This document shows, one piece after another, positions 48,772 through 58,881 of a stretch of DNA of 64,000 bases. Positions within the stretch are counted from its first letter, which is position 1, and the number at the start of each line of letters is the position of its first letter. Below the pieces are notes generated by a model that worked only from the letters and a program-made list of their open reading frames with translations, ran no database searches and was not told where the DNA came from. A program made the position numbers and the translations under genes. The stretch spans positions 192,362 to 256,361 of the forward strand of contig JAVEYW010000006.1 in the NCBI GenBank assembly GCA_034003325.1, in the 5' to 3' direction. The stretch is from Desulfobacterales bacterium. GTDB taxonomy: Bacteria > Desulfobacterota > Desulfobacteria > Desulfobacterales > JAFDDL01.

Positions 48772-48848
<77 letters not shown>

Positions 48849-48858
48849 TAATAAAATC

Positions 48859-48890
48859 AAGGGCTTATGCAATTGCTAAGCCCTTTTTTT
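48859..48890 (+). terminator. Terminator downstream of tRNA-fMet
   Basis: AAGGGCTTA pairs with TAAGCCCTT (9 bp) around TGCAATTGC, followed by seven T in total. The integrase stop codon lies within it. Confidence 0.88.
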
Positions 48891-50069
48891 GTCTCTGTAT
48901 ACGGCCAGTGGGACAATATTGGTACACACATCGTCCATATTCGCTGTCTCCCCCTCCACGCTCTCTATTTTTTCGATTTCCGTCCGCGCCGTTTCTATAG
49001 ACCGTAAGAAGGCGTTTCCATCGGCCCGCGTTTCCTGCGGTATCCAGGCGTAATACTTCTGAAAAATCATCTGTAGAGAAGAATGCCCCAGCATGTTTTG
49101 AACCCAGCCGACATCCTCTTTGGCCGAGATCATCATCGTTGCGAAAGTATGTCGCGTTTGTATAGGGGGTCGATATGGAATACCGACTTTTTCAAGAGCG
49201 GGGCTCCAGACCTCCTTGCGGAAGTGGTCCGGGGTCATTCGGTTGCCATCCTTTGTCAGGAAAATATGTTTGCCACCGCCAGTCAGTTTTTTTTGCTCCG
49301 CCAACGCATCAATTACTTGGGGCAAACATTTAATGTACCGCTTTGATTTTTTTGTTTTCGGAACACCGTCCTTTTTATACACAAAGGTCCTGTGAATGAA
49401 AATTTGTGGCTCCGGGTTCATATCCGCTAAATAATCCTGCCACTCCAATCCATTTAGTTCCCCTGCCCTCATCCCAGTAAAAAACGCAACACAGACATAG
49501 GGTCTGTACCAGGGATTAACGGCACCAAGAATGAGTTGGATTTCTTGGTATGACAGCGGATGGATTTCTGGAGCTTCCTCCGGGAGCCTTTTAATCTTTC
49601 GCATCACGTTACTCTCTACGATATTCTCTTGATGAGCAAAATCAAAAACGGATTTCATTGGCACCAGAATATTATTGGCTCTTTTAGATCCTACCTTCAA
49701 TAGGCTTCTGAACTTTACCACGTCGTGATAAGAGATTTCTTTTATCGGCATATCTTTGAAAACCGGTAGTATATGGCCGTTCATGGCGGACACATAGTCG
49801 GGCCATGTGGAATGTCTCACCTCCGTTTTGTGGATAATAGCCCATTGTTTTGCGACTTCGCCGAAGGTAATGAGTTCCTCTGGCAGTGTTTCGGGTCGGT
49901 CCAGTTGGCTGTATTCAATCAGATTGGACAAATATAAATCCCTTAAATCTCTGGCTACCTTAACATCAGCGGTATTCAAAGACCGTTTGAAAGTGGTACC
50001 GTTGTGCCTTTTACGAAAGTAAAAAATACCGTCTCTGTCTTGTAAATGCCTATTTTTATTTTTTGCCAT
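48876..50069 (-). CDS. Tyrosine-type integrase of the element
   Basis: 397 residues: an arm-binding N-terminus, SAM-like core-binding domain (about 70-165) and catalytic domain with Arg in FFTGMRAGELNGL, RHTFAT, LGHSS and the nucleophile Tyr in YYAWIP. The canonical His before the second Arg (HxxR) is Ile here (IQTRH), a variant I recall in this integrase subfamily. It should recombine the element with the tRNA-fMet 3' end immediately next to it. Its ATG overlaps the stop of the excisionase-like gene (TAATG), with GGAGG upstream. Confidence 0.93.
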   Translation of the reverse strand: MAKNKNRHLQDRDGIFYFRKRHNGTTFKRSLNTADVKVARDLRDLYLSNLIEYSQLDRPETLPEELITFGEVAKQWAIIHKTEVRHSTWPDYVSAMNGHILPVFKDMPIKEISYHDVVKFRSLLKVGSKRANNILVPMKSVFDFAHQENIVESNVMRKIKRLPEEAPEIHPLSYQEIQLILGAVNPWYRPYVCVAFFTGMRAGELNGLEWQDYLADMNPEPQIFIHRTFVYKKDGVPKTKKSKRYIKCLPQVIDALAEQKKLTGGGKHIFLTKDGNRMTPDHFRKEVWSPALEKVGIPYRPPIQTRHTFATMMISAKEDVGWVQNMLGHSSLQMIFQKYYAWIPQETRADGNAFLRSIETARTEIEKIESVEGETANMDDVCTNIVPLAVYRDKKRA

Positions 50070-52093: not shown

Positions 52094-52957
52094 TCACAAA
52101 TACCTTTGAGTAAGATACCGGGCATACTCTGAATGTTCCTCCGGTAGTTTATTTGCCATAGAAACAATGAGTTCCTGATAGGTGAGCGAATGGAACATTA
52201 TACCATCAGATTTCGCCACCTCTGAAAACTCGGTGATTTCATCCCGGTGCTGTTTGCCCTGATCGCCCAAGACATCATACCAGAGGTAAAGCAGGCGAAA
52301 TCCACCTATTCCAAACTGACGTTTGAGACCGAGGATATGCTTTACGAGCTGTGCCGGGTGCAAATGGGCGAACTCATTATCATCGGGGGATATGCGCTTT
52401 GAGAGCTTCAGCAAGCTGGGGATATCATTCCAGAGGTCATCAAGGTCAAAATACTGGGATTTGAGCCCGCCATGCTTATGAGCCCCATAGGCTTCAGAGA
52501 ATTTGCATTCGACGGCAAACCTTTTGAATTTTGAGGATGGCTGATTATGGAACACAACGTCAATGTTTGGATGGAACCCGAATTTGTCGCTGATGGGATA
52601 CTTCTCCTCGAAACGAATATCGAATGAAACCTGCGATCCCATCCGACAAAGCCCACATAAGGATGCCATCGCCGGAACCGCATTTATTGATTTCCAATAC
52701 TGGAACACGTTGACCCCAAGCGCTGAGGATGAGTGCACCGCCTGCATTTTACCGGGAAACTCAGTTGATCCGAGCTCTCCACCATCTCCACCCGCAAATG
52801 ATTCCCGAACCTCTGGCAAAAGTGGCTGAAACAGATTGTGCTCCAGTTTTGAAGTGTAGGCAAGACGTCCGCGAGTCCCCTTGCTTCCAACCAGGGTGAG
52901 ACCGGAATTCGCAGCCCATGCAGTCTGTTTGGCTAAAATGTAGTCGTACCCGTTCAT
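52094..52957 (-). CDS. PD-(D/E)XK-like nuclease, putative restriction-type enzyme
   Basis: 287 residues. FHPNIDVVFHN...FKRFAVECKFSEAYG gives Asp, then the Glu-x-Lys pair after about 20 residues, as in PD-(D/E)XK nucleases. The N-terminus GYDYILAKQTAWAANSG and overall plan resemble PGN_0703-type putative restriction endonucleases, a recollection that needs checking. No methyltransferase is next to it, so a stand-alone or modification-dependent defence nuclease is possible. GGAAGGGG lies before the ATG. The gene looks intact. Confidence 0.55.
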   Translation of the reverse strand: MNGYDYILAKQTAWAANSGLTLVGSKGTRGRLAYTSKLEHNLFQPLLPEVRESFAGGDGGELGSTEFPGKMQAVHSSSALGVNVFQYWKSINAVPAMASLCGLCRMGSQVSFDIRFEEKYPISDKFGFHPNIDVVFHNQPSSKFKRFAVECKFSEAYGAHKHGGLKSQYFDLDDLWNDIPSLLKLSKRISPDDNEFAHLHPAQLVKHILGLKRQFGIGGFRLLYLWYDVLGDQGKQHRDEITEFSEVAKSDGIMFHSLTYQELIVSMANKLPEEHSEYARYLTQRYL

Positions 52958-53395
52958 TTTTCCCCTTCCGCCGCAATGCATATATCGGTGCTAAGGCCAT
53001 TGGGATCAATCTGCCACAACTCTTTGAATTTATCGACAAGTTAACACAAAACATGAGAGGGGGAGACAGTGTGAGGCACGGTTAAAAATTATTGCAACCA
53101 ATGGGATCATCCTGCTGCCGGCCAAAACATTTTTTCGATGTGCCACCAATGTGAATATTTGCCAATGCGGTGAGGCCCTTATGCCAAGTTATGAGGGGAT
53201 TTTTTGTTCAGCTGAGGCAAAGCCCTTGTGCACGGCAGAAACAAGGTCTCCACGCATCTCAGGGCGTTTGGAGCCATAGACTGAATTCGGGATGGTTAAT
53301 AGCTGTCACCAGATTTTAGAGTGCCCTCACAGTGGTGATAGTGGAGAGATATACGAAAGCCGAGTTGGCCTAAAAAAATGGCTTGCTTTCATGAA
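52958..53395. other. Intergenic region between the nuclease-like and ImmA genes
   Basis: No gene supported. Probably carries the promoter of the nuclease-like gene. No terminator with a clear T run was found. Confidence 0.35.
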
Positions 53396-54169
53396 CTACT
53401 CTGGTTTTACCCATAGGACAGTTAAGACAAAACCAAAGGTTGGAGACGCAATAGAATGCTCCACAACCTCTTCCAGGCCTCGGCTTTCGACCCAAGCATC
53501 AGCATCGACCTCCTGAGGATCTGGCTCCATTTGTTCACCGGCAAAAAAATCATAGGCCAATGTTCTTTGGTCCAAATTGTTTTCTCGTTTTATAAATCGC
53601 CACCAGGTCGGGCTCTTATAAAACCATTTAATTTGATTATGGGCTGAAAAAATTACCGCACATTGCTCAGGGCAGTGCCTGACAAATTTAATTGCCGTTG
53701 CTGTAAGAGATGCCCTGAAATCCTTGGCTATTGCCCGAATTGGATCAAAATTGACGGTTCCAACATCACATCGCAGCTCCACCAATTTTGTTGGTAATAT
53801 AAGTTCACTGGCAAAAAAATTGGCTTGGGTCTCCTGACTACTCTGATACCAACTAAACATATCCTCGTTGTTGCAAACTTTTTTGATCGATGTAAGGTGG
53901 TTCATCAAAAGATGGCCCAACTCATGAGCGATACTGAATCGTTGCCGCTCAGGAGGATCGCCACCAGGGATTCGAATAGTTGCCTTGTTTCCAAGCTTAA
54001 CAATACTTGCCGCTGCTCCTGGGACTTTTTTTTCAACAACCACAGCACCTTTGATAAATGCTATATCTCGAATGCGGATGTGTTCTGGTGAACATATGCC
54101 AAATTCGTCGATCAGGCCAGCCGCTAATCGTTCAGCCTCGATTAATTTATAGCTGATATCATTCTTCAT
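53396..54169 (-). CDS. ImmA/IrrE family metallopeptidase
   Basis: 257 residues. The zinc site is IAHELGHLLMNH and the third ligand follows in QETQANFFASELILP. These peptidases cut repressors to induce mobile elements (ImmA of ICEBs1) or stress genes (IrrE). The C-terminal 110 residues are an extra domain of unknown role. The ATG overlaps the stop of the 140-residue gene. A TTG 39 bp upstream with GGAGG is an alternative start. Its target is likely a regulator in the same element. Confidence 0.88.
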   Translation of the reverse strand: MKNDISYKLIEAERLAAGLIDEFGICSPEHIRIRDIAFIKGAVVVEKKVPGAAASIVKLGNKATIRIPGGDPPERQRFSIAHELGHLLMNHLTSIKKVCNNEDMFSWYQSSQETQANFFASELILPTKLVELRCDVGTVNFDPIRAIAKDFRASLTATAIKFVRHCPEQCAVIFSAHNQIKWFYKSPTWWRFIKRENNLDQRTLAYDFFAGEQMEPDPQEVDADAWVESRGLEEVVEHSIASPTFGFVLTVLWVKPE

Positions 54170-54581
54170 TTGATGACTCGTCAGGGAAAGATGCTTTGGA
54201 TAATTCAAGGTCCTCCAAAAGGGCTTTCATCTCTTCCATGCCCATGGTTTCTAAATCTCTGTAGGCGAAACCAGCTTCAGTTTTGGACACTTGTTTTAGT
54301 CGGTCCAAGATCTGTTCTTTGGTCCAATCCTTGAATCGATCCATAATGTCATTGCTTCGTTCTGCGAGATTAAGCCTTTTTTCTTTTGCCTTGTCCAAAA
54401 CGGATCTTTTTGCCGCCATTGAAATTTTTTCCCTGGCTATCTTTAAGCGACACAATGCGGCTTCGACATCTATACCATCGTTTGCAAGCTCATCTTTTAT
54501 CTCTTGAATGGTTTGATGCTCACTCATGCCCAAAGCATCTGTCAGGGTATCCAATATTTCCAGCTTGTTATTTATGCCCAT
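54159..54581 (-). CDS. Hypothetical helical protein preceding ImmA
   Basis: 140 residues, almost entirely helical and highly charged, with coiled-coil-like heptads around 40-100. Not a recognisable XRE repressor. It overlaps both neighbours (10 bp with the sigma-like gene, 11 bp with ImmA), so the three are one translational unit. By analogy with ImmR-ImmA it could be the peptidase substrate or an anti-sigma-like partner. This is inference only. Confidence 0.65.
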   Translation of the reverse strand: MGINNKLEILDTLTDALGMSEHQTIQEIKDELANDGIDVEAALCRLKIAREKISMAAKRSVLDKAKEKRLNLAERSNDIMDRFKDWTKEQILDRLKQVSKTEAGFAYRDLETMGMEEMKALLEDLELSKASFPDESSNEE

Positions 54582-55234
54582 TCTTCCCGCCTTTCTATGG
54601 AAGATTGTTCTTGCAGTTTGGGGTTGAACTGTTTGAGCTTCCTGCGTAATCTTTTTAGTAAATTATTGACCTCATTAACCTCAAAGCCGGTTTGAGCAGC
54701 TATGCCTTGTGGTTTGCTTATCCCTTCTTCAAAGCATAAAATTACCATTCCTAAGTCATCATCCTCGCAACTAATCTGGTCGAGCTCATTCATTAGGACT
54801 CGAAGGTTTTCCGACTCGATCAGCTCATCTTCTGGGGTTTTGGGTCTTGATGCTGCAACGGTTTCATCAGAAGAACCAAAAATTTTATCATCCTTGGGGG
54901 AACCATCCTCATAAAATAAAGATTCTGTAGGAAATTCTGATTCATGCTCCGCATTATGACTGGTCATGCTTCTTATGATGCCTTTTAAAAAAATAGCAAT
55001 GTCCGGGCATGTCTTTTTATTCCAGTTACGGTAGGTCCCGTTAGTCCCAATTCCATACGCCCGAGCGAACGCTTCTCGCACAAGGGATTCGGGGTCCATA
55101 TCCTTACCAAGCCAATGAAATATTTGCACCCTCCAACGAGCATATTTCAGCACTGCGGGTAAAACAGCATCCCAATCCACTTTGTCGAGATGTTTGTGAA
55201 TAGACGGATCATAGGCATCTTTATACCGGGGCAT
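54572..55234 (-). CDS. Sigma-70-like / ECF-type regulatory protein
   Basis: 220 residues. An N-terminal helical part (WDAVLPAVLKYARWRVQIFHW, LVREAFARAYG) resembles sigma region 2. A polar linker with TPEDELIESE follows, then GISKPQGIAAQTGFEVNEVNNLLKRLRRKL, a region-4-like helix-turn-helix. The -35-reading helix is believable but region 2 is diverged. A second protein with the same plan is encoded at 58246-58881. The ATG with AAGGA upstream was chosen over a GTG one codon earlier. It is divergent from the ubiquitin-like operon. Confidence 0.6.
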   Translation of the reverse strand: MPRYKDAYDPSIHKHLDKVDWDAVLPAVLKYARWRVQIFHWLGKDMDPESLVREAFARAYGIGTNGTYRNWNKKTCPDIAIFLKGIIRSMTSHNAEHESEFPTESLFYEDGSPKDDKIFGSSDETVAASRPKTPEDELIESENLRVLMNELDQISCEDDDLGMVILCFEEGISKPQGIAAQTGFEVNEVNNLLKRLRRKLKQFNPKLQEQSSIERREEWA

Positions 55235-55293
55235 CACATATCCTTATAGAATTTCCACTGTCGTTTCATAACCTAATGCCACCTACGATTCAA

Positions 55294-55358
55294 TTTTTGC
55301 CATTTTTTCTATTTCAGATGGCAAAAAATGTTTCCATACCGGCATACACATTTAGAAT
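55294..55358 (+). promoter_or_regulatory. Regulated promoter of the ubiquitin-like operon
   Basis: TTTTTGCCAT (55294-55303) and ATGGCAAAAA (55318-55327) are a perfect 10-bp inverted repeat with a 14-bp spacer. Just downstream TTTCCA (55331-55336) and TAGAAT (55353-55358) with a 16-nt spacer make a sigma-70-like promoter. The repeat sits in the divergent space and could control both directions. Confidence 0.55.
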
Positions 55359-55404: not shown

Positions 55405-55635
55405 ATGGGAAAAAATCAACACGTAGTGCCTCATAGGAACAACTGGGCTGTTAGAGGTGCCGGTAATCAGAGAGTAACCTCGACACATCGGACACAGTCA
55501 GATGCAATCACCGCTGCCCGCCAAACCGCGATAAAACAGCAGAGCGAAGTTGTTATACACCGACCCGACGGCAGAATTCGGGACAAGGATAGTTATGGTA
55601 ATGACCCTTGCCCACCATGTGACACAAAACATTGA
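55405..55635 (+). CDS. DUF2188 family protein
   Basis: 76 residues. HVVPHRNNWAVRGAGNQRVTS...DAITAARQTA...SEVVIHRPDGRIRDKDSYGNDPCPP is the DUF2188 pattern, a small basic beta-alpha-beta domain of unknown function. It is the first gene of the ubiquitin-like operon and lies 55 bp before the next. The start has AAAGGA. A longer in-frame ORF from 55276 runs through the promoter and is rejected. Confidence 0.85.
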   Translation: MGKNQHVVPHRNNWAVRGAGNQRVTSTHRTQSDAITAARQTAIKQQSEVVIHRPDGRIRDKDSYGNDPCPPCDTKH

Positions 55636-55690
55636 GCGATACTATCATGGATACAAAGCCACTACAATATTGCTTTAGAGGAGACACCAA

Positions 55691-55960
55691 ATGAGCAACA
55701 ATCATTCAGACAATGCCCCTGGACAGAACAAAACCACCACAATTATTGTAAACGGTCGCCAGCGGGAAGTGACAGGAAAGACGATCTCATATAGCCAAGT
55801 CGTCCAACTTGCATTTCCCAACGATCAAGCCGATGCCAACATTGATTATACAGTCGCTTACGCTAACCCCCACGGCAAAGATGGCACGCTTGTTAATGGG
55901 CAGGAAGTGCATGTCAAGGAAGGAATGATTTTCAATGTCACCAAAACTAATCGTTCTTGA
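55691..55960 (+). CDS. Ubiquitin-like protein (multiubiquitin family, single domain)
   Basis: 89 residues. After a polar lead (1-15) the domain runs TTTIIVNGRQREVTGKTISYSQVVQLAF...YTVAYANPHGKDGTLVNGQEVHVKEGMIFNVTKT, the beta-grasp pattern of the bacterial multiubiquitin family. Only one copy is present, whereas many relatives are tandem. The C-terminus ends TKTNRS with no Gly-Gly, so it is either processed before conjugation or uses a different end residue. Good GAGGAG site. It overlaps the E1 gene by 26 bp. Probable modifier of a bacterial ubiquitin-like pathway. Confidence 0.85.
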   Translation: MSNNHSDNAPGQNKTTTIIVNGRQREVTGKTISYSQVVQLAFPNDQADANIDYTVAYANPHGKDGTLVNGQEVHVKEGMIFNVTKTNRS

Positions 55961-57143
55961 TCCCGACCTTCAGCGCCTCCAGCAAGAGGGTTATGAGGTT
56001 GAAGTGCAAAATGGACATGTTCTCGTGCACTCTGTTCCATACGTGAACGCGCAAAGAAAGGTCTTAAGGGGTATCGTTGTAACCAACCTTAATGGCAATG
56101 TAGGAAAACTGGGCAAACCAGGCGACCATCAGGTTTGGTTCGTCGGTGAATATCCTTGCCGCCATACCGGAATGCCCATTGAAGCAATTCGCCACTCCTC
56201 GCAAGCTATTCAGCTCTGGCCGGGATTTGAGGCACAGCACCGATTCTCAAACAAGCCATTTGGGGCAAACGGCTATCCCGACTACTATTCCAAGATGAAA
56301 AATTACATTTCTATAATCTCCAATGAGGCTAAAAAAATAGATCCGGATGTGACTCCTTGCACTTTCAGGGTTATCGTTTCAACTGATGGAGATTCGGTAT
56401 TTCGATATTGGGATACTGCATCAAGCCGAGCAAATATTATGACTGTATCTGCGAAACTTGCCATGGACAAGATAGCCATCGTTGGGCTCGGAGGCACCGG
56501 CTCCTACGTCCTCGACCTGGTTGCAAAAGCCCCGGTTCGTGAAATTCATCTATATGATGGTGATAAATTTATACAGCATAATGCTTTTAGAGCACCAGGT
56601 GCCGCATCGATCGAAACCCTTGAGGATCAGCCTTTCAAAGTAACCTATTTTGCTCGCATTTATGGTGCTATGCGGACAGGTATTTTTCCCTATGAGGAAT
56701 ATATCACTGAAAGCAACATCAGTGTACTTGAGGGATTTGATTTTGTTTTCCTATGCGTGGATAAAGGTGAAGTCAGGAAGCTGATAGGAAATTTCCTCCG
56801 ACTAAACGGAATCCCGTTTGTCGACGTTGGCATGGAGCTGGTGATAGTTTCAGAGGAAAATTGCCTTATTGGGACCTGTCGGGCAACATTGAGCACCTTG
56901 GATAAATCTGATCACTTCGAAAGGCATGCCCCCCAAGGATCTGACAATGGGAACGATCTTTACGGGACAAATATTCAGGTCGCGGATATGAATGCGCTCA
57001 ATGCCGCCCTGGCGGTTATTAAATGGAAGCAGGTTTGCGGCTTTTACCAAGATATTGTAAAGGCCCACCATACGACATACTCGATTAATTCGCACTCCTT
57101 GACGAGGGATGAAATGACTGGAAAAGTTGACAGCATATCATGA
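55935..57143 (+). CDS. E1-like ThiF-family adenylyltransferase with N-terminal DUF6791-type domain
   Basis: 402 residues. From about 175 a ThiF/E1 adenylation domain: AIVGLGGTGSYVLDL (nucleotide loop), DGD (208-210), HNAFRAPG with the Asn and Arg of the NxxR motif (216-219), and FLCVD (272-276). QVADMNALNAALAVIKWKQ near the C-terminus is typical of this branch. Residues 1-170 are a separate domain (VWFVGEYPCRH, FSNKPFGANGYPDYYSKMKNY) that I recall as DUF6791, possibly E2-like. It should adenylate the C-terminus of the adjacent ubiquitin-like protein. Candidate acceptor residues are Cys310, Cys315, Ser320 or Cys75. No separate E2 gene is present. Confidence 0.88.
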   Translation: MSPKLIVLDPDLQRLQQEGYEVEVQNGHVLVHSVPYVNAQRKVLRGIVVTNLNGNVGKLGKPGDHQVWFVGEYPCRHTGMPIEAIRHSSQAIQLWPGFEAQHRFSNKPFGANGYPDYYSKMKNYISIISNEAKKIDPDVTPCTFRVIVSTDGDSVFRYWDTASSRANIMTVSAKLAMDKIAIVGLGGTGSYVLDLVAKAPVREIHLYDGDKFIQHNAFRAPGAASIETLEDQPFKVTYFARIYGAMRTGIFPYEEYITESNISVLEGFDFVFLCVDKGEVRKLIGNFLRLNGIPFVDVGMELVIVSEENCLIGTCRATLSTLDKSDHFERHAPQGSDNGNDLYGTNIQVADMNALNAALAVIKWKQVCGFYQDIVKAHHTTYSINSHSLTRDEMTGKVDSIS

Positions 57144-57571
57144 AAAGAAAAACGATCAGGCCAGCATTCGTAGACTTTATTCCGGATCGTTTAGAGGAAG
57201 GTGTACTATATATCTGTGAGCGATATAAAACCGCCGCACACAAATGCTGTTGTGGCTGTGGTGAGGAAGTTATTACCCCGCTGTCCCCGGTTGATTGGTC
57301 CCTCCGGAAGGAAGGAGTGGTCGTTACACTTCGGCCATCTATTGGTAACTGGAGTTTTGCATGCAAATCCCACTATTTGATTTCAAAGAATCAAGTGGTT
57401 TGGGCAAATGGGATGTCTCAGTGGCAAATTGATCGAGTCCAGGCACGAGATAGAGCGGATAAAAAAGCATATATCGAGGCAGTTAACCTGAAAAAGAGGA
57501 AACAGACGGCTCTAATTTCCAGAATAATCAGAGCCTGGCAGTCACTGGTACGTTGGCTGAAGTCTTTGTAG
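57140..57571 (+). CDS. DUF6527 family protein, candidate peptidase of the ubiquitin-like system
   Basis: 143 residues. HKCCCGCGEEVITPLSPVDWSL and VVTLRPSIGNWSFACKSHYLI are the two conserved blocks of the DUF6527 family, with one His and several Cys placed like a zinc site (His34, Cys36, Cys38, Cys40, Cys75, His78). The C-terminal 50 residues are a basic helix. The ATG overlaps the E1 stop (ATGA). I recall DUF6527 genes accompanying multiubiquitin and ThiF genes, where a role in processing or removing the modifier has been proposed. Here that is inference. Confidence 0.8.
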   Translation: MKRKTIRPAFVDFIPDRLEEGVLYICERYKTAAHKCCCGCGEEVITPLSPVDWSLRKEGVVVTLRPSIGNWSFACKSHYLISKNQVVWANGMSQWQIDRVQARDRADKKAYIEAVNLKKRKQTALISRIIRAWQSLVRWLKSL

Positions 57572-58245: not shown

Positions 58246-58881
58246 TCAGTCAGTGTATCCGATGTCTTCGAGGTAGGACCTGAATCGTTCAACCTTTCTG
58301 TTCAGGCGTTTGCAATAGCTGAAATAATCAATTCCAAGCCTTCTGGCTTCATCACACCGATCCCTGGCCCCCAGGAGCACCGCCAGATCATGATGTCCGA
58401 AAAAGTCATCGGCTATCTGCATCAGCTCTCTTCCGATAAGTTCATCCTCTGGGGAAACAGCGTTTATGAGTCCATCTATCCCATCGCTTTCATAACGACT
58501 GGTGGACATCCCGGATCTGTCTATGGTGTTATCATATTCCAGTTGTGATAAAGGGATCGTTCTTTCCTTTTTCAGGCCGTTGTCGAGCAGCCTCCGGAGA
58601 GATTTGAGTTCATAGTGGACGAACAAGGTCACATATACTTGAAAAGGGGACTTGCTTGGGTCCCACTTGAGATGCTTTTCCCTTTCCCAGAAAACAGTAA
58701 ACAAATGGTTGTATATTTCTTTTCGTTCAATGCCATGCCTGGCGAACAAATACTTGACGGTACGATTTATATGGGGGGTTATTTTGAGTCGGATGCCGTG
58801 ATTTCTAACTGCGAGCTTTATGATGTCAAAGCACATCTTTAAAGTATGTTCTTCAGACCCCCATTCACCCTTAAAACCCAC
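58246..58881 (-). CDS. Second sigma-like protein of the element
   Basis: 211 residues. HLFTVFWEREKHLKWDPSKSPFQVYVTLFVHYELKSLRRLL resembles sigma region 2, where a helix enters the -10 DNA. After a linker with VSPEDELIGREL comes a shorter C-terminal helical part (EARRLGIDYFSYCKRLNRKV) that could be a weak region 4. The PEDELI linker is shared with the sigma-like protein at 54572-55234. The start is a GTG with no good ribosome site. The Met at residue 16 is an alternative. Confidence 0.5.
   Translation of the reverse strand: MGFKGEWGSEEHTLKMCFDIIKLAVRNHGIRLKITPHINRTVKYLFARHGIERKEIYNHLFTVFWEREKHLKWDPSKSPFQVYVTLFVHYELKSLRRLLDNGLKKERTIPLSQLEYDNTIDRSGMSTSRYESDGIDGLINAVSPEDELIGRELMQIADDFFGHHDLAVLLGARDRCDEARRLGIDYFSYCKRLNRKVERFRSYLEDIGYTD

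What the first reader, a model, noticed from the sequence alone, without database searches (positions are those of the whole stretch)
55405..57571. Compact bacterial ubiquitin-like conjugation operon on an integrated element
Four overlapping or closely spaced genes: DUF2188, a ubiquitin-like protein, an E1-type ThiF enzyme and a DUF6527 protein. The Ubl/E1 overlap (26 bp) and the E1/DUF6527 ATGA overlap show they act together. They lie on a tRNA-integrated element with a nuclease-like gene and an ImmA peptidase, the setting typical of phage-defence cargo. Known bacterial Ubl systems (Bil, Bub, type II CBASS) carry related parts.
Basis: partly seen in the sequence, partly recalled or inferred. 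Interest (0 to 1): 0.85.

Follow-up and report, generated by a model that had tools for sequence, protein, structure and literature searches.

The report
Ubiquitin-like operon with sigma-factor switch
The four genes are a real but already described type of bacterial ubiquitin-like operon; what looks new is that it sits opposite a three-gene control module (a sigma factor, a small partner and a DNA-damage-type protease) that also faces other immune operons and appears to read a matched pair of promoters between them.

Summary
The window holds DUF2188, a single-domain Multi_ubiq Ubl, a DUF6791-ThiF E1 and a Zn-finger DUF6527 protein, with the 26-bp and 4-bp overlaps as stated. The operon type is not new: it matches row 6e of Iyer et al. 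2006, in the form whose E1 carries "domain X" instead of JAB. It is common on plasmids, and its E1 is nearest to Bub.
Two things go beyond that. (1) The Ubl ends in an invariant T-x-[RKQ]-S, not Gly-Gly. It is read inside the 26-bp overlap, where the E1 residues vary freely, so selection acts on the Ubl tail. The only invariant Cys of the E1 lies in DUF6791; that domain's confident model matched no PDB fold.
(2) The divergent genes are not loose "ImmA" cargo. An ECF-sigma-like gene, a small partner and a CapP-type protease form a conserved trio. It faces polyUbl, Bub-like and CBASS operons, in the slot elsewhere held by CapW, CapH+CapP or CapK+CapS. The shared intergenic region carries matched outward promoter-like pairs (TGTCCG or TGGCAA, N17-18, GCATA), absent from control loci. 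I infer a sigma/anti-sigma/protease switch, mechanistically like CRISPR Calp. I found no description of it, but two key Bub papers were unreadable here.

The parts
55405..55635 (+). DUF2188 protein (76 aa), first gene of the operon
   Evidence: Pfam 3.7e-24; PADLOC phage-defence candidate PDC-S16 3.2e-36
55691..55960 (+). Single-domain ubiquitin-like protein (Multi_ubiq, 89 aa), tail NVTKTNRS
   Evidence: Pfam 1.9e-21; solved relative 9cd2; T-x-[RKQ]-S tail invariant in 19/19 loci and seen in L035 and L037
55935..57143 (+). E1-like enzyme: DUF6791 (about 10-161) + ThiF/E1 adenylation domain
   Evidence: Pfam; invariant GxGGxG, D208, D210, N216, R219, K235 and C75; top fold and profile hit Citrobacter BubCD
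55935..55960 (+). 26-bp overlap of the Ubl and E1 frames, coding the Ubl tail
   Evidence: Identical offset in 19/19 loci; Ubl T and S invariant while E1 codons 5, 7 and 8 vary
57140..57571 (+). DUF6527 zinc-finger-like protein (143 aa)
   Evidence: Pfam 1.4e-22; C36, C40, C75, H78 invariant in 18/18
54572..55237 (-). ECF-type sigma-factor-like protein ('sigL', 221 aa), divergent to the operon
   Evidence: TIGR02937 2.2e-5; family profile's best PDB hits are ECF sigma factors (SigH 6.8e-4, CnrH 0.03); Sigma70_r2 in 5/17 relatives
54159..54581 (-). Small helical partner ('mid', 140 aa); proposed anti-sigma factor and protease substrate (inference)
   Evidence: No family match; conserved between sigL and CapP in 15 loci; overlaps both neighbours
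53396..54208 (-). CapP-type M78 metallopeptidase (likely start ATG at 54169)
   Evidence: PADLOC capP 9.5e-57, 14/14 relatives; PDB 7t5t CapP 3e-27; HExxH (H82, E83, H86) and E113 invariant
55319..55346 (+). Predicted promoter of the DUF2188-Ubl-E1-DUF6527 operon: TGGCAA-N17-GCATA
55275..55302 (-). Predicted promoter of sigL-mid-capP: TGGCAA-N17-GCATT, mirror of the first
52094..52981 (-). REase-ARP nuclease-like gene downstream of capP (neighbour, not in the conserved trio)
   Evidence: Pfam 4.2e-12
48876..50069 (-). Tyrosine integrase beside tRNA-Met (48772-48848)
   Evidence: Pfam 1.4e-16; tRNA; no second att copy

Best explanation
A stress- or phage-inducible ubiquitin-like modification operon of the known polyUbl/'domain X' type, under a sigma/anti-sigma/protease switch. 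Resting: the small partner holds the sigma factor inactive. On DNA damage or infection, CapP senses single-stranded DNA and cleaves the partner (or the sigma-partner complex). The freed sigma factor fires two mirror-image promoters, one amplifying its own operon and one turning on DUF2188-Ubl-E1-DUF6527. The ThiF domain then adenylates the C-terminal Ser of the Ubl, which needs no processing; the activated Ubl passes, probably via C75 of DUF6791, to targets, with the DUF6527 zinc finger as specificity factor. Shown by sequence: families, synteny, intact motifs, tail constraint, promoter pairs. Inferred: every biochemical step, ssDNA sensing (by homology to CapP), the partner as anti-sigma factor, C75 chemistry, and the phage-defence role.
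For: Operon identity and coupling. E1 adenylation residues intact; nearest to the Bub E1. Ubl tail under selection. CapP with intact HExxH and Glu. sigL profile hits ECF sigma factors. The sigL-mid-CapP order recurs and faces DUF6791-type operons (window, L002, L004, L007, L179), JAB/Bub-like operons (L028, L034, L014, L031) and CBASS (L029, L030). In other DUF6791 operons the same neighbourhood holds WYL, HTH+M78 or CapK/CapS-like genes. TGTCCG-N17/18-GC[AC]TA occurs 19 times in 13 loci, always between sigL and the divergent genes; mirrored pairs in 11/17 sigL regions at p<=0.015 (window 0/200 shuffles), 0/11 controls. The -35 class changes with the sigL recognition helix.
Against: sigL is a distant sigma homologue (16-21% to most relatives; no Pfam hit for the window copy). 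'mid' has no family, so anti-sigma is inferred from position. The -10 word was chosen after looking, so the p-values are optimistic; L002 is missed by the pair test and seen only by the targeted pattern, and L007, L014, L028, L034 and L178 give no significant pair. No E2 or JAB; the DUF6791 model has no significant fold match, so its role is unsupported. According to PMC13373217, Bub operons have not been shown to protect against phage.
Confidence: 0.55

Rival explanations
1. sigL is a DNA-binding repressor (CapH-like) built from sigma regions. It sits on the nested inverted repeat as one operator, and CapP cleaves it or the partner to de-repress both sides.
For: CapH+CapP and CapW, which hold the same slot elsewhere, act by repression (PMC13373217). 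The repeats are palindromic.
Against: Each half keeps a fixed 16-18 nt spacing between its two boxes while the gap between halves varies (8-32 nt). Some loci keep a strict match only on the sigL side. Both fit two promoters better than one operator. Both sigma region 2 and region 4 similarities are present.
Confidence: 0.2
2. The E1 does not conjugate the Ubl to other proteins. It chemically modifies the Ubl's own C-terminal T-x-[RK]-S, as MccB or PaaA modify peptides, and the modified Ubl or a released product is the effector.
For: No E2 or JAB; strictly conserved short tail; PaaA and MccB are among the fold hits.
Against: BubCD, a Ubl-pathway E1, is the best hit by profile and fold. An invariant Cys in DUF6791 and a zinc-finger partner suggest transfer.
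Confidence: 0.2
3. The operon is an ordinary mobile stress module with no immune role; the controllers only reflect co-residence on plasmids and islands.
For: No phage protection shown for Bub operons (PMC13373217).
Against: The same controllers face known immune systems such as CBASS, and controllers of this class sit beside most DUF6791 operons.
Confidence: 0.2

Closest known systems
PolyUbl operon type 6e, 'domain X' subset (Iyer et al. 2006, PMC1779556)
   Same: One to three Ubl domains, E1 with an uncharacterised N-terminal domain instead of JAB, Zn-finger protein; a solo-Ubl case was already listed
   Different: The passages read there do not mention the controller trio, the promoter pair or the frame-specific tail constraint; DUF2188 is an added first gene here
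Bub (bacterial ubiquitination-like; Citrobacter BubA/BubB/BubCD structures)
   Same: Best profile and fold match of the E1; related Ubl family; shared controllers
   Different: BubCD relatives are JAB-E1 fusions beside an E2-like gene; here JAB and E2 are absent, DUF6791 is present, and the Ubl tail seems to need no trimming
CapH+CapP, CapW, CapK+CapS controllers (PMC13373217)
   Same: Same position facing immune operons; CapP homologue retained
   Different: A sigma-like protein and an unassigned partner replace the HTH repressor; activation by promoter recognition is proposed instead of de-repression
Calp (CalpL protease, CalpT anti-sigma, CalpS sigma; type III CRISPR, PMC12751052)
   Same: Same proposed logic: signal-activated protease frees a sigma factor from an anti-sigma factor
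   Different: M78 CapP-type peptidase instead of Lon-SAVED; no CRISPR; the A3 profile found no anti-sigma factor among its best PDB hits

Membership tests
Iyer 2006 type 6e polyUbl operon | Protein with 1-3 Multi_ubiq-type Ubl domains | tested here: met
   One domain, Pfam 1.9e-21
Iyer 2006 type 6e polyUbl operon | E1-like protein with JAB or 'domain X' at its N-terminus | tested here: met
   DUF6791 + ThiF; that DUF6791 equals domain X is inferred from position
Iyer 2006 type 6e polyUbl operon | Zn-finger protein C-x3-C-x35-38-H-x2-C | tested here: met
   C-x3-C-x34-C-x2-H invariant in 18/18; last pair in reverse order and spacing one shorter than printed in the paper
Bub | JAB-E1 fusion (BubCD) | tested here: not met
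   No JAB; N-terminal domain is DUF6791
Bub | Separate or fused E2-like protein | tested here: not met
   No E2 in Pfam, PADLOC or NCBIfam scans; DUF6791 fold search without a significant hit
Bil | BilA-BilB-BilC-BilD set (Ubl, E2, JAB, E1) | tested here: not met
   No E2 or JAB
Type II CBASS | CD-NTase plus Cap2 E1-E2 fusion | tested here: not met
   No CD-NTase found; PADLOC E1-E2 models hit only a short part of the ThiF domain
CapH+CapP controller | CapP-family M78 peptidase with HExxH | tested here: met
CapH+CapP controller | HTH repressor CapH encoded next to CapP | tested here: not met
   Neighbours are 'mid' (no family) and sigL (sigma-like)
ECF sigma factor | Sigma region 2 and region 4 similarity | tested here: met
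   Profile vs PDB SigH 6.8e-4 over positions 40-182; TIGR02937 2.2e-5, below its cut-off
ECF sigma factor | Autoregulated bipartite promoter with constant spacing | tested here: met
   Mirrored -35/-10-like pairs; activity not testable here
Calp-type switch | Protease cleaves anti-sigma partner on a signal | not testable with these tools
   Needs biochemistry

The most novel reading that the evidence does not exclude
sigL-mid-CapP is an undescribed class of immune-operon controller: a CapP-type protease that frees a dedicated sigma factor, which fires a mirrored promoter pair to switch on ubiquitin-like, CBASS and DUF2188 operons with positive feedback. In this operon it drives a Ubl that is activated through a C-terminal serine rather than glycine.
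Probability: 0.5. Interest if true: 0.75.

Novelty: new variant of a known kind. Interest (0 to 1): 0.62.

Why it matters
Known controllers next to bacterial immune operons are described as repressors relieved by DNA damage. A sigma-factor version would be an activating, self-amplifying switch used by several unrelated immune systems, and its mirrored promoters give a sequence tag for finding more. The fixed T-x-[RKQ]-S tail, and an E1 whose only invariant Cys lies in a domain with no recognised fold, also make the unanswered 2006 question about 'domain X' directly testable.

Tried and rejected
E2 fold for DUF6791: the strand order (helix, four strands, Cys, two strands, helix) and invariant H65/C75 suggested a UBC-like fold, and the domain model is confident (mostly around 90 pLDDT over residues 10-140). 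Foldseek gave nothing significant (best E 0.53; Cdc34 chains only as noise), so I do not claim it.
Phage origin: no relative of the E1 among 50,697 phage records; a few IMG/VR contigs carry it.
att site: none found besides the tRNA itself.
Other sigL targets: 27 hits to TGGCAA-N16-18-GCATW in the genome against 5 for the reversed pattern. Only one further outward pair, upstream of a plsY-like gene (L182), probably chance.
mid profile vs PDB: MHC and other unrelated hits, treated as noise.
Viral-contig scans with the sigL and mid alignments were not possible.
The two main Bub papers (PMC12885553, PMC12145246) and the CapH/CapP paper are not held.

Full report
Observation. The four genes exist at the given coordinates and belong to the families named: DUF2188, Multi_ubiq, DUF6791 + ThiF, DUF6527. 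Ubl and E1 overlap by 26 bp and E1 and DUF6527 by ATGA. PADLOC does not name the operon; it labels the DUF2188 gene as phage-defence candidate PDC-S16.

What the operon is. It matches the fifth operon type (row 6e) of Iyer et al. 2006: a protein with one to three Ubl domains, an E1 with an uncharacterised N-terminal domain in place of JAB, and a zinc-finger protein; a solo-Ubl case was already listed. tblastn finds the E1 in 121 plasmid records, commonly annotated ThiF + multiubiquitin + DUF6527. So the compact operon is a member of a known kind. It is rare in the host phylum (2 of 395 genomes).

The enzyme. Family-wide invariant residues include the adenylation motifs GxGGxG, D208, D210, N216, R219 and K235. 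The best profile and fold match is Citrobacter BubCD (9e-12; Foldseek 1.8e-12), followed in the fold search by PaaA, ThiF, UBA5 and MccB. JAB-type relatives of this operon are the true BubCD relatives (1e-39). The only invariant Cys in the DUF6791-type E1 is C75 in DUF6791, within H65...G71-x2-P74-C75-x3-G79. The DUF6791 domain model is confident but matches no solved fold, so its role is open.

The Ubl tail. In 19 of 19 loci the Ubl ends T-x-[RKQ]-S and the E1 starts exactly 26 nt before the Ubl end; two viral-contig loci agree. The Thr and Ser fall on E1 codons 5 and 8, which must then begin with C. There the E1 residues are L/Q/P and L/R/H/P, most of what such codons can encode. Selection is therefore on the Ubl tail, not on the E1 start. 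The solved relative 9cd2 also ends TDKS. JAB-type Ubls have other tails (for example TTEGGAE). This suggests activation through a terminal Ser without processing; conjugation itself is not shown.

The controllers. Divergent to the operon are an ECF-sigma-like gene, a 140-aa protein of no known family and a CapP-type M78 peptidase; neighbouring genes overlap. CapP: PADLOC capP in 14/14 relatives, PDB CapP 3e-27, zinc motif invariant. sigL: profile hits are led by ECF sigma factors. The trio keeps its order across Desulfobacterota, Beta- and Alphaproteobacteria and Bacteroidota. It faces polyUbl operons (window, L002, L004, L007, L179, L014, L031), Bub-like operons with JAB-E1 and E2 (L028, L034), CD-NTase/SAVED CBASS (L029, where mid and CapP are broken), type II CBASS (L030) and DUF2188 genes (L010-L012).

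The slot. Of 22 DUF6791-type loci, I count 5 with the sigma trio, 6 with HTH + M78 (CapH+CapP-like), 1 with a fused XRE-M78, 3 with WYL (CapW-like), 1 with CapK/CapS-like genes (L008; HATPase 1.5e-5, the second gene recognised by eye), 2 with an M78-type domain in a UvrD helicase, and 4 with none recognised. [quoted passage not shown] The trio therefore sits where known damage-responsive controllers sit.

The promoters. The sigL/operon intergenic regions carry matched outward-facing boxes: TGTCCG-N17/18-GC[AC]TA at 19 sites in 13 loci, all in that region and nowhere else in those loci. The window has TGGCAA-N17-GCATW at 55275-55302 (-) and 55319-55346 (+); L002 has the same -35. A symmetric-pair test gave p<=0.015 in 11 of 17 sigL regions (window 0 of 200 shuffles) and no signal in 11 control regions (lowest p 0.24). 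The -10 word was chosen after inspection, and some loci are related (L010/L011, L028/L034), so these p-values are optimistic; the controls used the same test. The gap between halves varies (8-32 nt) while each half keeps its own spacing, which favours two promoters over one operator. The sigL recognition helix differs between -35 classes: Y/F-x-T/S with TGTCCG, V-N-N with TGGCAA, I-D-Y with TCTGAA, as expected for direct recognition.

Mechanism and limits. The order sigma, partner, protease resembles CalpS/CalpT/CalpL of type III CRISPR, where a protease frees a sigma factor from its anti-sigma factor (PMC12751052). I propose the same logic here with CapP as the sensor-protease. Families, synteny, tail constraint and promoter pairs are shown; the anti-sigma role, ssDNA sensing, conjugation and phage defence are inferred. 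Novelty is limited by what I could read: the main Bub papers are not in the library.

Noticed in passing
window 58246-58881 (-): A 211-aa protein without a family match whose sequence looks, by eye, like a second divergent sigma-type protein.
   Followed up: no
window 55405-55635; L010-L012, L018, L019; L002 7248-7697, L177 6307-6780: The first-gene slot of these operons is interchangeable: DUF2188, DUF1508 or a small protein that looks Cas2/SinR-like. DUF2188 also faces the sigma trio without any Ubl operon (L010-L012).
   Followed up: partly
L022 798-4208, L025 789-4172: UvrD-helicase proteins directly upstream of multiubiquitin operons give CapP-type (M78-like) domain matches.
   Followed up: no
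L039 5534-8584: Viral contig with mid + CapP but no recognisable sigL, next to a broken JAB-E1/E2 operon and followed by a cytidine-deaminase-like gene.
   Followed up: no
L029 4953-6753: In this Cereibacter CBASS locus the mid and CapP genes are interrupted, so the controller may be inactive there.
   Followed up: no
L182 about 1996-2057: One further outward-facing TGGCAA/GCATW pair in the same genome, upstream of a plsY-like gene; possibly chance, possibly a second sigL target.
   Followed up: partly
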